Source: Methylocystaceae bacterium
GTDB taxonomy: Bacteria > Pseudomonadota > Alphaproteobacteria > Rhizobiales > Beijerinckiaceae
NCBI GenBank assembly: GCA_009773555.1
Contig: WSXZ01000026.1
Span: 1 to 47,059 of the forward strand
Length of the DNA stretch: 47,059 nt
Reading direction: 5' to 3'
Below the pieces are notes generated by a model. It had not been told where the DNA came from, did not search any database, and worked only from the letters and a program-made list of their open reading frames with translations. This document shows, piece after piece, positions 6,984 to 10,875 of the stretch; within the stretch, counting starts at the first letter, position 1; each line of letters begins with the position of its first letter. Made by a program: the position numbers and the translations under genes.

Positions 6984-6996
6984 GGCCGGGGCGGCT

Positions 6997-7090
6997 GACC
7001 CGGGCATCCACGCCGCGACGTTTCGCATATGCTGCAAGGCGCATGCAGCGGCGCCGCGTGGATGCCCGCGACAAGCGCGGGCATGACGGC
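6997..7090. repeat. Dispersed palindromic repeat, family B
   Basis: An inverted pair of arms built on GGGCATCCACGCCG and GCGTGGATGCCCGCG, followed by ACAAGCGCGGGCATGAC. The same design recurs at 10427-10533. It ends just before the nsrR promoter region. Together with the family A pair it fills the 317-base gap after proB. Confidence 0.8.
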
Positions 7091-7110
7091 TGAAGTATTT
7101 CCGAACTTCG

Positions 7111-7127
7111 AATACCGTGTTAGTATT
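7111..7127. promoter_or_regulatory. Candidate NsrR operator overlapping the nsrR -10 element
   Basis: A perfect inverted repeat, AATAC, 7 bases, GTATT, four bases before the nsrR ATG. It overlaps TAGTAT at 7121-7126, a good -10 element. This suggests negative autoregulation. The -10 lies only about six bases from the start codon and no ribosome binding site is visible, so the mRNA may be leaderless. Confidence 0.45.
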
Positions 7128-7131
7128 TTGC

Positions 7132-7563
7132 ATGCGGCTTACGACCTTCACCGACTTTGGCCTGCGCGCCCTCATCCTTCTCGCCGACCGCAATCCGCAA
7201 GTGATGAGCGCGGCGGCGATCGCCGATCATTTCGACGTTTCCCGCCACCATATGGCGAAAGTGCTGCAGGAGCTCGCCGCGGCCGGATATGTCGAAGGCA
7301 TCCGCGGCGCGCAGGGCGGCGTTCGATTGGCGCGCGATCCGCGCGATATCCGAATCGGCGAGGTGGTCCGCAGGCTTGACGACCAACCGCTGGTCGAATG
7401 TTTCAGCCCGCAGGGCAGCAACTGCGCGCTTTTGCCGCGCTGCCGACTGAAGGGCATGCTGGCGCGCGCCGAACAGGGATTTATGCGCGAACTCGATCGC
7501 TACACCCTGCACGACTGCCTCGAAAAAACCGCCGCCTTTCCGCTCGCCGATCTCTCCGCCTGA
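7132..7563 (+). CDS. nsrR: Rrf2-family nitric-oxide-sensing repressor NsrR
   Basis: 143 residues. NsrR carries an Fe-S cluster that NO destroys, releasing repression of NO-detoxifying genes. MRLTTFTDFGLRALILLADR is the typical Rrf2 N-terminus. The winged helix follows (MSAAAIADHFDVSRHHMAKV, then AAGYVEGIRGAQGGVRLARD). Three cysteines sit in the cluster-binding pattern ECFSPQGSNCALLPRCRLKG (about residues 87-105). The start chosen fits the family; a longer frame has no support. hcp and a reductase follow on the same strand, which is the classical NsrR target context. The gene may be translated from a leaderless mRNA. Confidence 0.88.
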   Translation: MRLTTFTDFGLRALILLADRNPQVMSAAAIADHFDVSRHHMAKVLQELAAAGYVEGIRGAQGGVRLARDPRDIRIGEVVRRLDDQPLVECFSPQGSNCALLPRCRLKGMLARAEQGFMRELDRYTLHDCLEKTAAFPLADLSA

Positions 7564-7593
7564 ACATGCGCCGCGAGCATTGCTCGTCACGGC

Positions 7594-7629
7594 TTGACTT
7601 CCGACCTTTTTAATACGCATTCTAAATAC
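7594..7629 (+). promoter_or_regulatory. hcp promoter with AATAC half-sites
   Basis: TTGACT at 7594-7599 is a good -35; CATTCT at 7618-7623 (18-base spacing) is the best -10. Two AATAC motifs, at 7612-7616 and 7625-7629, flank the -10 and match the half-site of the inverted repeat in front of nsrR. A shared NsrR site is plausible but not proven. Confidence 0.4.
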
Positions 7630-7651
7630 CTATTAAGCAGGAGGGAGCGAC

Positions 7652-9316
7652 ATGTTCTGTTACCAATGCGAGCAGACTTACCGGTCGGACGCGGGCGCCG
7701 GCTGCGCGGGCGCGAAGGGCATGTGCGGCAAGGACGCGACGACCGCCGATCTGCAGGACATTCTGCTCTATGTCTGCGAGGGCGTCGGCCAATATCTGCA
7801 TCGCGCGCGCCAGCTTGGCGCGACCGACATCGACGCCGACCGCTTCATTCTCTTCGCCTTCTTCACCACCCTTACCAACGTCAATTTCAACGCGGTGAAA
7901 TTCGTCGAACTGATCCAGCGGGCCTCGCAGATCCGCAATCGCGCCAAGGCGCTTTACGAAGACGCCGCGCGCGCCGCCGGCAAGACGCCCGAACGTCTCT
8001 CCGGCCCCGCCGCTTTCGCGCCAGCCGACAATATGGCCGGACTTCTCGCGCAAGCATCCGAGGCGGCGGTGCGCAAAGACGCAGCGATCCTCGGCGAAGA
8101 CGCGGTCGGCGCGCGTGCGCTCATTCTCTACGGCCTCAAGGGTGTTTGCGCCTATGCGCATCACGCGCGCGTGCTCGGAGAAGAGCGCGACGCGATCTAT
8201 GCAACCGTCGAACATGCGCTCGATATGCTGGCGCGCGAAGAGCGTGACGTCGCGACGCTCCTCGACGAGGCGCTGGCGCTTGGCCGCGCCAACTTCCTCG
8301 CCATGGAGGCGCTCGACGCCGCCAACACCGGCACGTTTGGCGCGCCGACGCCGACGAGCGTGCGCGTGACGCCGATCAAGGGAAAGGCGATCCTCGTCTC
8401 CGGCCATGATCTGAAGGATCTGCACGCGATCCTCGAAGCGACGAAGGACAAGGGGATCAACATCTATACGCATGGCGAAATGCTGCCGGCGCATTCCTAT
8501 CCCAAGCTCAAGGCCTATCCGCATCTCGCCGGCAATTACGGCGGCGCCTGGCAGGAGCAGCAGAAGGAATTCGCGGACTTCCCCGGCCCGATCGTCATGA
8601 CCTCCAACTGCCTGATCGAGCCGCAGCCGCGCTATCGCGGACGCATCTTCACGGCGGGACCTGTCGGCTGGGCGGGCGTGCGCCACATCGCCGATGAGAA
8701 TTTCGCGGTCGTCGCGCAGGCGGCGCAGGCCCTGCCCGGCTTTACTGAAGACGCGCCGGAACAGACCATCACCATCGGCTTTGGGCGCGAGGCCGTGCTT
8801 GGAGTCGCCGACAAGGTGATCGACGCCGTGAAGAGCGGCGCCATCCGCCACTTCTTCCTCGTCGGCGGCTGCGACGGCGCGGCGCCGGGCCGCAACTACT
8901 ACACGGACTTTGCCGACGAAGCGCCGAAGGATACGGTGATCCTCACGCTCGGTTGCGGCAAATATCGCTTCAACAAGCATGACTTCGGGACGATCGACGG
9001 TCTGCCGCGGCTTCTCGACATGGGCCAGTGCAACGACGCCTATTCGGCGCTCGTTGTCGCGACGAAACTCGCTGAAGCCTTCGGCGTCGGCGTCAATGAA
9101 CTGCCGCTGTCGCTCATCGTTTCCTGGTTCGAGCAGAAGGCCGCCGCCGTTCTTCTCACGCTGCTCGCGCTCGGCGTGCGCAATGTGCGCATCGGCCCGA
9201 CGCTGCCGGCCTTCCTTACGCCGGCGCTCGTGGCTGTGTTGGTCGAAAAGTTTGGCGTCCAACCGGTCGGCGACGCCAAGGCCGACATCGCAGCCTCGCT
9301 CGCCCGCGCCGCCTAG
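7652..9316 (+). CDS. hcp: Hybrid cluster protein (hydroxylamine / NO reductase)
   Basis: 554 residues. Hcp reduces NO to N2O or hydroxylamine to ammonia in the cytoplasm and limits nitrosative stress. The N-terminal cysteines are C3-X2-C6-X11-C18-X6-C25, the spacing of the E. coli type with a [2Fe-2S] proximal cluster. Hybrid-cluster ligands are seen downstream: [43 protein letters not shown] and [11 protein letters not shown]. The ATG follows AGGAGGG, an excellent ribosome binding site. It lies 88 bases after nsrR and 55 bases before the reductase gene. In a methanotroph this fits detoxification of hydroxylamine and NO made when ammonia is co-oxidised by methane monooxygenase. Confidence 0.96.
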
Positions 9317-9371
9317 CCCTTATACGGCGGACGCCCGACTTCAGGCGTCCGCCCCTTCGCCGGAATCCGCC

Positions 9372-10400
9372 ATGTACAAGGTCAGCCTGCTCACGCGCGA
9401 CGGCGCGACGATCGCCTTCGACGCTGAACCCTCCGACACGCTACTGGACGCCGCCGAACGCGCGAGCATTTATCTTCCCTCCTCCTGCCGGGAGGGCGGC
9501 TGCGGCGCCTGCCGCGTTTCTCGCGAAAGCGGAGACGTCGAACTCATGGCCTACAGCAGCGTAGCGCTAAGCGAGGACGAGCGCATGGCGGGCGATATAT
9601 TGCTGTGCCGCGCGCAGCCGCGCAGCGATCTCGCTTTGCGGGCGCCGTTCGACGAAGCGGCGGTCGGCTTTGCGCCGGTTCCCGAGCGGCGGGCAACGAT
9701 TGTGGCGATCGAGCCCGTCGGCTCTGGAACGCTGCGCCTGCAGCTTCAATATGAAGACGATCCGACATTCGGGCGCGCGGCGCAGTTCACGGCCGGCCAA
9801 TTCATCGAACTCACGCTTCCCGACGGCTCCGCGAAGCGTTCCTATTCGCTCGCCAATGCGCCGAACTGGGACGGAACGCTCGAATTGTTCATTCGCCTTC
9901 AGCCGCACGGCGCCTTTTCGGATTATCTTCGTGATGGCGGCGCCATCGGCGACACGCTGCTTGTGCGCGGTCCGCAGGGTCAGTTCACACTCGATGAGTC
10001 GAGCGCGGCGCCGCGCTGGTTTGTCGTTGGCGGCACCGGCCTCGCGCCGGCGCTCTCGATGCTGCGGCAAATGGCCGAATTCGCCGATCAGCGCCCCTGC
10101 CGGCTGTTTTTCGGCGTTAACAAAGTCCATGAGCTTTTCGCGCTCGACGCGCTCGACGCACTGAAAGCGGCGTTGCCGCAGCTCGTCGTGACGCTCTGCG
10201 TGTGGAAGCCGGAACAGGAATGGCGCGAGTTTACCGGCACGCCGGTAGAAGCGCTCGCGCAGGCGCTGTCGAGCGCGCCCGAGACGCCGGACATTTACGC
10301 CTGCGGCCCCCCGGCGCTGATCGCCGCGACCGAGGAAGCTGGCCGTTCCGCCGGCGTCTCGCATGATCGCATCTTCAGCGAGAAGTTTACGGCGGCGTGA
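9372..10400 (+). CDS. Ferredoxin-FAD-NAD(P)H reductase, MmoC/BenC type; likely Hcp reductase
   Basis: 342 residues. Domain order is plant-type ferredoxin (1-90), FAD-binding barrel (about 105-200), NAD(P) domain (about 210-342). Cysteines C39-X4-C44-X2-C47-X31-C79 in SSCREGGCGACR and ILLCRAQP bind [2Fe-2S]. KRSYSLAN binds FAD, VGGTGLAP and YACGPP belong to the NAD domain. From memory, the cysteine spacing, FSDYLRD, FFGVN and the FSEKF end resemble the soluble methane monooxygenase reductase MmoC (about 348 residues). No MMO hydroxylase genes are near. E. coli Hcr has its ferredoxin domain at the C-terminus, so this is a different architecture. Position behind hcp suggests it feeds electrons to Hcp; an orphan monooxygenase reductase is the alternative. 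Confidence 0.85.
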   Translation: MYKVSLLTRDGATIAFDAEPSDTLLDAAERASIYLPSSCREGGCGACRVSRESGDVELMAYSSVALSEDERMAGDILLCRAQPRSDLALRAPFDEAAVGFAPVPERRATIVAIEPVGSGTLRLQLQYEDDPTFGRAAQFTAGQFIELTLPDGSAKRSYSLANAPNWDGTLELFIRLQPHGAFSDYLRDGGAIGDTLLVRGPQGQFTLDESSAAPRWFVVGGTGLAPALSMLRQMAEFADQRPCRLFFGVNKVHELFALDALDALKAALPQLVVTLCVWKPEQEWREFTGTPVEALAQALSSAPETPDIYACGPPALIAATEEAGRSAGVSHDRIFSEKFTAA

Positions 10401-10426: not shown

Positions 10427-10533
10427 CGTCATGGCCGGGCTTGTCCCGGCCATCCACGCCGGGACATTGCGCCAATGCTGAAAGTCCAGCGCAGCGACGC
10501 CGCGTGGATACCCGCGACAAGCGCGGGCATGAC
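10427..10533. repeat. Dispersed palindromic repeat, family B
   Basis: An inverted pair: CGTCATGGCCGGGCTTGTCC at one end and GACAAGCGCGGGCATGAC at the other, with a middle containing CCAATGCTGAAAGTCCAGCG. It matches the element at 6997-7090. The rest of the 475-base gap to 10875 shows no gene; CAATGGGCC occurs there twice, five bases apart, near 10738-10761, without known meaning. Confidence 0.8.
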
Positions 10534-10875
10534 GCTGAAAGGTGGCGTCCTGACGATAGCCGCCGCCGTGCAAGGTTGAGGCGCGCCGCCGACGTAAAGC
10601 CATGCCAAAGAGGCCCGGCGCCCCCATCGCCCCCCGCAACGGAGCCGTTGCTCCCTGCGCGGAAGCTCGACCGGACGAGCGCTACACCTGGAAAGTGGCG
10701 CGCGGATGATGTCGCCATTTTGACCCATTTCTTCCAAACAATGGGCCGTAAGCAATGGGCCGCTGAACGAAAGTCGCGCCGCAAGTCCCCAGCCGGATTG
10801 CCGCCAACTCCGTGCCCTGCGATCCGGCTTCTGACGAAGAAAACCATTCGAGGGCGGTCCAAGAGAGGGTCACAA

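What the first reader, a model, noticed from the sequence alone, without database searches (positions are those of the whole stretch)
7132..10400. NsrR-Hcp unit with an MmoC-like reductase in place of Hcr
The gene after hcp encodes a reductase with N-terminal ferredoxin and the same cysteine spacing as I recall for MmoC, not the E. coli Hcr order. It may show that a monooxygenase-type reductase was recruited to hydroxylamine/NO defence, or the reverse. In methanotrophs this matters because ammonia co-oxidation yields hydroxylamine.
Basis: partly seen in the sequence, partly recalled or inferred. Interest (0 to 1): 0.7.

Follow-up and report, generated by a model that had tools for sequence, protein, structure and literature searches.

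The report
Hcp operon with MmoC-type partner reductase
A nitric-oxide defence enzyme (Hcp) in methane-eating and many other bacteria is encoded together with what looks like its own electron-feeding partner, which is not the partner known from E. coli but a cousin of the one that powers soluble methane monooxygenase.

Summary
In detail: an NsrR-like regulator, a class II-type hcp and a reductase with ferredoxin first (2Fe-2S, FAD, NAD). The reductase scores far better as MmoC (411 bits, cut-off 500) than as Hcr (95, cut-off 383). The held genome shows no sMMO hydroxylase; the same search finds it in 9 of 13 selected relatives.

It is not an MmoC captured by one strain. Of 149 same-family genomes, exactly the 4 with hcp carry a close homologue, adjacent. 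Of 398 phylum genomes, 29 hcp genes (8 short forms aside) stand beside this reductase (6), an Hcr-family reductase (22) or neither (1). In a scan biased towards this type, 76 of 80 loci have hcp directly upstream, many in non-methanotrophs. Hcps split by partner in a tree, and Hcp and reductase distances correlate (r 0.89).

Bootstrap trees place these reductases beside sMMO MmoC, but AU tests leave that deep order open; only a recent swap in alphaproteobacterial methanotrophs is rejected. One relative matches the published Methylobacter norR-hcp-"hcr" cluster, whose Hcp and Hcr mutants are NO-sensitive, so that "Hcr" is probably this type. Best reading: a second, non-orthologous Hcp reductase; electron transfer is inferred.

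The parts
7096..7122 (+). conserved element upstream of nsrR (TATTTCnGAA....AATACCGTGTTA type), candidate autoregulatory site
   Evidence: partly conserved in the alignment of 19 upstream regions; function inferred
7132..7563 (+). NsrR-like Rrf2-family regulator, 143 aa
   Evidence: Rrf2 Pfam 116 bits; NsrR equivalog 131 bits, below its cut-off 182; a homologue lies upstream of hcp in 15 of 15 loci L046-L060
7594..7634 (+). hcp promoter region: TTGAC element and 23-nt imperfect inverted repeat AATACGCATTCTAAATACCTATT (7612-7634), candidate operator of the regulator
   Evidence: TTGAC in 19 of 19 aligned regions, the repeat less strictly, half degenerate in L133; NsrR motif for comparison from PMC1274295 passages
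7652..9316 (+). hcp, hybrid cluster protein, class II-type N-terminal motif C-x2-C-x11-C-x6-C, 554 aa
   Evidence: 759 bits to PRK05290 (cut-off 367), Prismane Pfam 535 bits; motif; clade with other MmoC-type-paired Hcps, 99/98
9326..9353 (+). hairpin between hcp and the reductase gene
   Evidence: -23.7 kcal/mol for the 55-nt gap, z -3.25; z below -2 in 58 of 80 gaps of at least 25 nt (100 gaps in all)
9372..10400 (+). Hcp-linked, MmoC-type NAD(P)H reductase, 342 aa
   Evidence: adjacency; trees
9393..9620 (+). N-terminal 2Fe-2S ferredoxin domain (aa 8-83; Cys 39, 44, 47, 79)
   Evidence: Pfam Fer2 57 bits; cysteine spacing
9771..10334 (+). FAD-binding (aa 134-205) and NAD-binding (aa 217-321) domains
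   Evidence: Pfam FAD_binding_6 48 bits, NAD_binding_1 74 bits

Best explanation
The three genes are an NO-responsive operon. The NsrR-like repressor (Fe-S, NO-sensing: inferred) releases an operator over the hcp promoter. Hcp, a class II-type hybrid cluster protein, then reduces NO to N2O in the cytoplasm (activity known for E. coli Hcp; inferred here). The downstream reductase takes hydride from NADH onto FAD and passes single electrons through its N-terminal 2Fe-2S domain to Hcp's N-terminal Fe-S cluster, doing the job that the non-orthologous Hcr does in enterobacteria. The Hcp-reductase pair is inherited as a unit, while its regulator is exchanged (NsrR-, Crp/Fnr- or NorR-like by lineage). 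Shown by sequence: gene identity, adjacency, one reductase type per hcp, an Hcp tree that splits by partner, a partly conserved candidate operator. Inferred: electron transfer, substrate, regulation.
For: In 149 same-family genomes hcp occurs in 4, and exactly those 4 have a reductase at least 63% identical, next to it. In 398 genomes of the phylum, 29 hcp (28 full-length, one partial; 8 short class III-like ones aside): 6 with this reductase beside them, 22 with an Hcr-family reductase (11 over the Hcr cut-off, 11 at 209-263 bits), 1 with neither. In the named scan, hcp directly upstream, same strand, in 76 of 80, matches 17-288 bp apart; that scan was queried with nine Hcp-linked reductases, so it favours them. 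Order of G161 (taken as Methylococcales): 26 of 30 hcp loci examined have this reductase downstream, none a separate Hcr. Hcp tree: MmoC-type-paired 99/98, Hcr-paired 100/100; distances correlate, r 0.89 over 47 pairs, 0 of 1000 permutations as high. Regulators: NsrR-like in 15 of 15 loci L046-L060; of 30 loci of the order of G161, NorR-like in 18 and Crp/Fnr-like in 10; NnrS-annotated gene after the pair in A. ferrooxidans.
Against: I saw no biochemistry for this reductase with Hcp in the listings and passages I looked at. G671, source of L272, is unnamed, so its identity with the Methylobacter strain is inferred. Some Hcps of the clade show no partner within the 1.5 kb held (L257, L264), and some reductases of the clade stand alone (L176, L121), so pairing is not absolute. 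One of the 26 order-level pairs is 782 bp apart (L239/L269). The regulator falls below the NsrR equivalog cut-off. Of 77 loci with over 700 bp upstream (83 tallied), 45, many of them Burkholderia, matched none of the NsrR, Crp/Fnr and NnrS queries; NorR was not queried there.
Confidence: 0.85

Rival explanations
1. An MmoC from an sMMO operon was moved next to hcp within methanotrophs.
For: Best NCBIfam and PDB matches are MmoC; Hcp-linked and sMMO reductases group together at 100/99 and 98/96; an ancient event is not excluded, since sMMO paraphyly is not rejected (p-AU 0.473).
Against: Hcp-linked reductases form one clade, 99/99 and 97/99, spread over many non-methanotrophs; sMMO plus the alphaproteobacterial methanotroph members as one clade is rejected, p-AU 0.003, and plus the Methylocaldum members is borderline, 0.060. 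Methylocystis silviterrae and Methylosinus sp. Sm6 carry both kinds, separately.
Confidence: 0.07
2. The pair acts mainly as a hydroxylamine reductase (hydroxylamine to ammonia), dealing with hydroxylamine from ammonia co-oxidation by pMMO.
For: Hcp is annotated hydroxylamine reductase; Methylocystis SC2 Hcp rises with ammonium (PMC9600857 passages); PMC3794950 (passages) assigns SC2 Hcp to hydroxylamine detoxification.
Against: Most of the 80 named loci come from organisms not titled as methanotrophs; NO-type regulators lie beside many of the operons; PMC9600857 itself calls hydroxylamine reduction of little or no physiological relevance and NO reduction more likely; NO sensitivity of Methylobacter mutants.
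Confidence: 0.12
3. The reductase is a general ferredoxin-type reductase that only happens to sit by hcp and serves another oxygenase or several acceptors.
For: Stand-alone members exist (L176, L121); BenC- and MmoC-like reductases serve oxygenases.
Against: Exact co-occurrence with hcp in 4 of 149 genomes, 76 of 80 adjacency in a biased scan, distance correlation 0.89, no PF02332 hydroxylase in the own genome and no mmoX match in any of the 80 named loci as held, at most 6 kb of flank.
Confidence: 0.06

Closest known systems
MmoC, reductase of soluble methane monooxygenase
   Same: domain order Fer2-FAD-NAD, about 40% identity, nearest in the bootstrap trees
   Different: not beside sMMO genes, separate clade, Hcp-linked positions P36, G45, W166 (61, 64 and 64 of 65 rows), 411 bits against a cut-off of 500
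Hcr, NADH oxidoreductase of E. coli Hcp (PRK10684)
   Same: sits directly after a class II-type hcp; FAD/NAD module and a 2Fe-2S domain; presumed same job
   Different: Hcr has its ferredoxin domain last (recalled; positions 37-239 of its 333-position model align with residues 139-341 here); 95 bits against 383; Hcr-family reductases occur beside another Hcp clade
Published hcp-hcr of Methylobacter tundripaludum 31/32 and Crenothrix D3 (PMC6977074, PMC5563964)
   Same: NorR next to hcp and a reductase; L272 has the full gene content published for Methylobacter
   Different: named Hcr there; the word MmoC does not occur in PMC6977074, and I did not see the sequences
pTF5 of Acidithiobacillus: prismane- and NADH-oxidoreductase-like genes (Dominy 1997)
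   Same: L043 is pTF5 and carries hcp plus this reductase type
   Different: known to me from its title in a reference list and recall only; the paper was not read
BenC, benzoate dioxygenase reductase
   Same: same domain order; cysteine spacing in 7 of 9 rows
   Different: separate 100/99 and 100/100 clade of 9 rows, all 9 over the BenC cut-off; this protein has 217 bits against 430

Membership tests
MmoC (sMMO component C) | NCBIfam NF045803 score over curated cut-off 500 | tested here: not met
   411 bits. Not a clean criterion: Hcp-linked L062 (509) and L272 (522) exceed it
MmoC (sMMO component C) | encoded with the sMMO hydroxylase | tested here: not met
   no PF02332 in own genome; same search rings in 9 of the 13 selected relatives
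MmoC (sMMO component C) | falls among sMMO reductases in a tree | tested here: not met
   inside the Hcp-linked clade, 99/99 and 97/99; sMMO rows outside
MmoC (sMMO component C) | domain order 2Fe-2S, FAD, NAD | tested here: met
Hcr (PRK10684) | NCBIfam NF007964 over cut-off 383, with C-terminal ferredoxin | tested here: not met
   95 bits, ferredoxin N-terminal
Hcr (PRK10684) | gene directly after hcp | tested here: met
   55-bp gap
Hcr (PRK10684) | NADH-dependent reduction of Hcp | not testable with these tools
   needs purified proteins
Hybrid cluster protein, class II | Hcp equivalog over cut-off | tested here: met
   759 bits against 367
Hybrid cluster protein, class II | class II N-terminal cysteine motif C-x2-C-x11-C-x6-C | tested here: met
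   met in the window, in 41 of 47 other MmoC-type-paired Hcps and 13 of 13 Hcr-paired ones (one of the six misses, L006, lacks its N-terminus); exact spacing recalled, PMC10210160 passages give a 4-residue insertion as the class II mark
NsrR | NsrR equivalog over cut-off 182 | tested here: not met
   131 bits, still its best equivalog (RirA 89)
NsrR | palindromic operator at the target promoter | tested here: inconclusive
   partly conserved imperfect palindrome in 19 loci; binding not tested

The most novel reading that the evidence does not exclude
The reductases of soluble methane monooxygenase and of this Hcp branch share one ancestor not shared with the other di-iron monooxygenase reductases: methane oxidation and NO defence drew on the same electron-delivery protein, possibly with sMMO taking its reductase from an Hcp operon. 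Class II Hcp would then be two partner-defined enzymes, and part of the published hcp-hcr work, Methylobacter at least, would be on the unrecognised one.
Probability: 0.3. Interest if true: 0.75.

Novelty: new variant of a known kind. Interest (0 to 1): 0.55.

Why it matters
In the papers I saw, the HCP reductase of class II is the E. coli-type enzyme, partners of classes I and III are unknown (PMC10210160 passages), and class II is said to occur only in facultative anaerobes (PMC10502027 passages). Here class II-type Hcps divide by partner, and a large branch (methanotrophs, Burkholderia and relatives, Acidithiobacillus and others) has a different reductase. This gives a defined pair to purify, would explain NO-to-N2O capacity in organisms without Hcr beside hcp, and warns annotators: the MmoC equivalog model scores some Hcp-linked reductases of Methylococcales above its cut-off, so a gene called mmoC is not by itself evidence of soluble methane monooxygenase.

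Tried and rejected
Considered and dropped: (1) recent MmoC capture within alphaproteobacterial methanotrophs (AU test). (2) Cysteine spacing as proof of MmoC kinship: BenC and other reductases have it too. (3) Adjacency unique to this strain. (4) Chance or annotation artefact.

Led nowhere or weak: PF02964 in the own genome rang nowhere, controls included, so says nothing. PMC searches for MmoC together with Hcp gave one unrelated paper; for prismane with methane monooxygenase and ferrooxidans none. Deep order of sMMO, Hcp-linked, BenC and other reductases: bootstrap 98-100 for sMMO with Hcp-linked, but AU tests do not reject sMMO with BenC (p 0.221), sMMO with other di-iron reductases (0.225) or sMMO paraphyly (0.473); sMMO with the Methylocaldum members 0.060. 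Two divergent sMMO rows (L016, L137) are long branches, and three joins of long branches are flagged in tree 2.

Rows dropped: of 178 reductase rows extracted, 50 were left out of tree 1, nearly all duplicates of loci already in, plus L039, L043, L121 and L179; an 82% identity cut then took 128 to 74. L121 rejoined in tree 2, which left out L028, L030-L033 and L183. The BenC label was given by default and checked afterwards: 9 of 9 are over the BenC cut-off. Hcp tree: 70 chosen rows. Of 58 hcp places in the order of G161, 50 were examined (30 loci, plus 20 of the other 28). In some searches many genomes had only 5 first-look candidates scored. The named scan kept the best 80 of 110 confirmed loci. 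One search used mononucleotide shuffles, and its loci are not independent.
Full report
What is there. The window is contig C19 of a 4.0-Mb, 144-contig assembly. Its closest named relatives at this locus are eight genomes titled Methylocystis and one MAG titled Alphaproteobacteria (L046-L053 and L060: reductase 88-94%, Hcp 93-97% identity). Three genes run on the + strand: an NsrR-like Rrf2 regulator (7132-7563), hcp (7652-9316) and a 342-residue reductase (9372-10400). Profile searches give Hcp far over its cut-off; the regulator best but under cut-off as NsrR; the reductase best as MmoC (411 bits, cut-off 500), then BenC (217), with Hcr at 95. Domain order is 2Fe-2S, FAD, NAD; the best solved structures are MmoC and BenC.

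No soluble MMO seen. The sMMO hydroxylase family PF02332 is not found in the held genome. The same search finds it in 9 of 13 selected relatives, so it works; G135, G114, G017 and G057 lack it like G000. The 11 places at 39-42% identity lie next to those hydroxylase genes by coordinates, so they are MmoC; one genome, G146, has both kinds at separate places. A caution: the pMMO family PF02461 was also not found in the held assembly, though found in 5 of the 7 genomes searched, among them three other hcp carriers. Methanotrophy of the window's organism is therefore taken from its relatives.

How general it is. In 149 genomes of the same family, hcp occurs in 4; exactly those 4 have a reductase at least 63% identical to this one, directly downstream. 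A scan of named genomes kept 80 loci: 76 have hcp directly upstream on the same strand. The scan was queried with an alignment of nine Hcp-linked reductases, so it favours that kind; its value is the spread of organisms, not the percentage. Of the other four loci, three begin 119-308 bp after a contig end, and one (L121) is a stand-alone gene with 1.3 kb of upstream sequence. Carriers include Methylocystis, Methylosinus, Methylocapsa, Methylocaldum and other Methylococcales, Burkholderia, Paraburkholderia and Caballeronia, Acidithiobacillus, Thiothrix, Acidocella, Rhodospirillales MAGs, a MAG titled Deltaproteobacteria (Myxococcota), Nocardia and a Mycobacteriaceae MAG. Plasmid records carry the pair too (Methylocystis MJC1, Acidithiobacillus).

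Partner exclusivity. In 398 genomes of the window's phylum, 37 have hcp. Eight matches are short (class III-like). Of the 29 others (28 full-length, one partial), 22 have an Hcr-family reductase beside them (11 over the Hcr cut-off, 11 at 209-263 bits), 6 this reductase, 1 neither, none both (counted). MmoC-family matches at E below 1e-80 occur in 7 genomes: these 6 and one without hcp (G444). Several of the 6 are close kin (four share genus code g130), so they are not six independent cases. In 201 genomes of the order of G161 (a genome titled uncultured Methylomonas; taken as Methylococcales), 49 have hcp. Of 30 loci examined, 26 have this reductase downstream, one of them 782 bp away, and none a separate Hcr; the four without are L244 (another Hcp type), L257 and L264, and L261 at a contig end. 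A second, more distant Hcp there (33-40% identical; class I-like start in the rows looked at) has no reductase of either type beside it in 19 of 20 further loci; the twentieth (L304) is again an Hcp of the first kind with its reductase.

Evolution. Reductase tree 1 (74 rows): Hcp-linked clade 99/99 (45 rows), sMMO clade 95/83 (8 rows), their union 100/99, BenC and other di-iron monooxygenase reductases outside. Tree 2 (95 rows): Hcp-linked 97/99 (65 rows), union 98/96, sMMO monophyly only 56/78. AU tests temper this: sMMO with BenC (p 0.221), sMMO with the other di-iron reductases (0.225) and sMMO paraphyly (0.473) are not rejected; sMMO with the alphaproteobacterial methanotroph Hcp-linked rows is (0.003), with Methylocaldum borderline (0.060). 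So kinship to MmoC is well supported by score and bootstrap, its exact depth and direction not. The Hcp tree splits by partner: MmoC-type-paired Hcps 99/98 (50 rows, two of them with no partner seen), Hcr-paired 100/100 (13 rows). Hcp and reductase distances correlate at r 0.89 over 47 pairs, with 0 of 1000 permutations as high; part of that is shared organism history.

Regulation. An NsrR-like gene precedes hcp in 15 of 15 loci L046-L060 and in L038. Over the hcp promoter a TTGAC box is invariant in 19 aligned loci, and an imperfect palindrome (window 7612-7634) is conserved less strictly, nearly perfect in L058 (AATAGGTATTTGAAATACCTGTT) and half degenerate in L133. Its layout resembles the NsrR motif gATGyAT-N5-ATrCATc of PMC1274295 (passages). 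Elsewhere the regulator differs: of 30 loci of the order of G161, a NorR-like gene diverges from hcp in 18 and a Crp/Fnr-like gene in 10; Crp/Fnr genes lie on the Acidithiobacillus plasmids, one of which has an NnrS-annotated gene after the pair. In 45 of 77 loci with over 700 bp upstream, many of them Burkholderia, none of the three queries matched. Different NO-type regulators around a constant pair support an NO function.

Link to experiments in print. I infer that the published Hcr is this reductase; the strain's own sequence was not seen. PMC9600857 (passages) reports a chromosomal Hcp among the most expressed proteins of Methylocystis SC2, induced by ammonium, with NO reduction preferred over hydroxylamine reduction; whether SC2 has this reductase was not tested. 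PMC1274295 already treats hcp of A. [quoted passage not shown] That neighbours exist is thus not new. That they are a distinct, MmoC-related reductase type marking its own Hcp branch I did not find stated; I saw the listings and passages of eight papers, and subscription journals are mostly not held.

Annotation hazard. The MmoC equivalog model (cut-off 500) scores Hcp-linked L062 at 509 and L272 at 522, while the other Hcp-linked proteins listed score 345-459. A gene named mmoC by that model need not mean sMMO.

Mechanism and limits. NADH to FAD to 2Fe-2S to the Hcp clusters, with NO reduced to N2O, follows established knowledge of the MmoC/BenC and Hcp families; nothing here measures it. A hairpin recurs in the hcp-reductase gap (58 of 80 gaps of at least 25 nt with z below -2, 20 shorter gaps untested; window z -3.25). 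It may set more Hcp than reductase, which is inference.

Noticed in passing
window 6996-7088 and 10442-10534: A 93-nt direct repeat (84% identical) flanks the nsrR-hcp-reductase unit; its 31-nt core matches only at these two places in the window with up to 3 mismatches, 0 in shuffles, and related copies lie upstream of nsrR in several Methylocystis loci.
   Followed up: partly
window 9326-9353: Strong hairpin between hcp and the reductase gene; hairpins of other sequence sit in the same gap in many related loci, in L272 followed by a T run like a leaky terminator.
   Followed up: partly
L062, L272: Hcp-linked reductases score above the NCBIfam MmoC cut-off and could be named MmoC.
   Followed up: yes
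L176 6331-7353; L121 1324-2346: Stand-alone paralogues of the Hcp-linked reductase, grouping with Methylococcales rows; L176 lies beside a metallo-beta-lactamase-fold gene that looks like pqqB (recalled); function unknown.
   Followed up: partly
L016; L137: Two divergent sMMO-like operons: L016 with MmoB- and hydroxylase-gamma-like genes and a 32%-identity reductase, L137 with MmoX at 68% identity.
   Followed up: no
L285-L303: A second, more distant Hcp (33-40% identical) in the order of G161 with no reductase of either type beside it.
   Followed up: no
G000 (window's assembly): No pmoA-type gene (PF02461) found in the held assembly although three other hcp carriers have it; perhaps an assembly gap in a multi-copy operon.
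   Followed up: no
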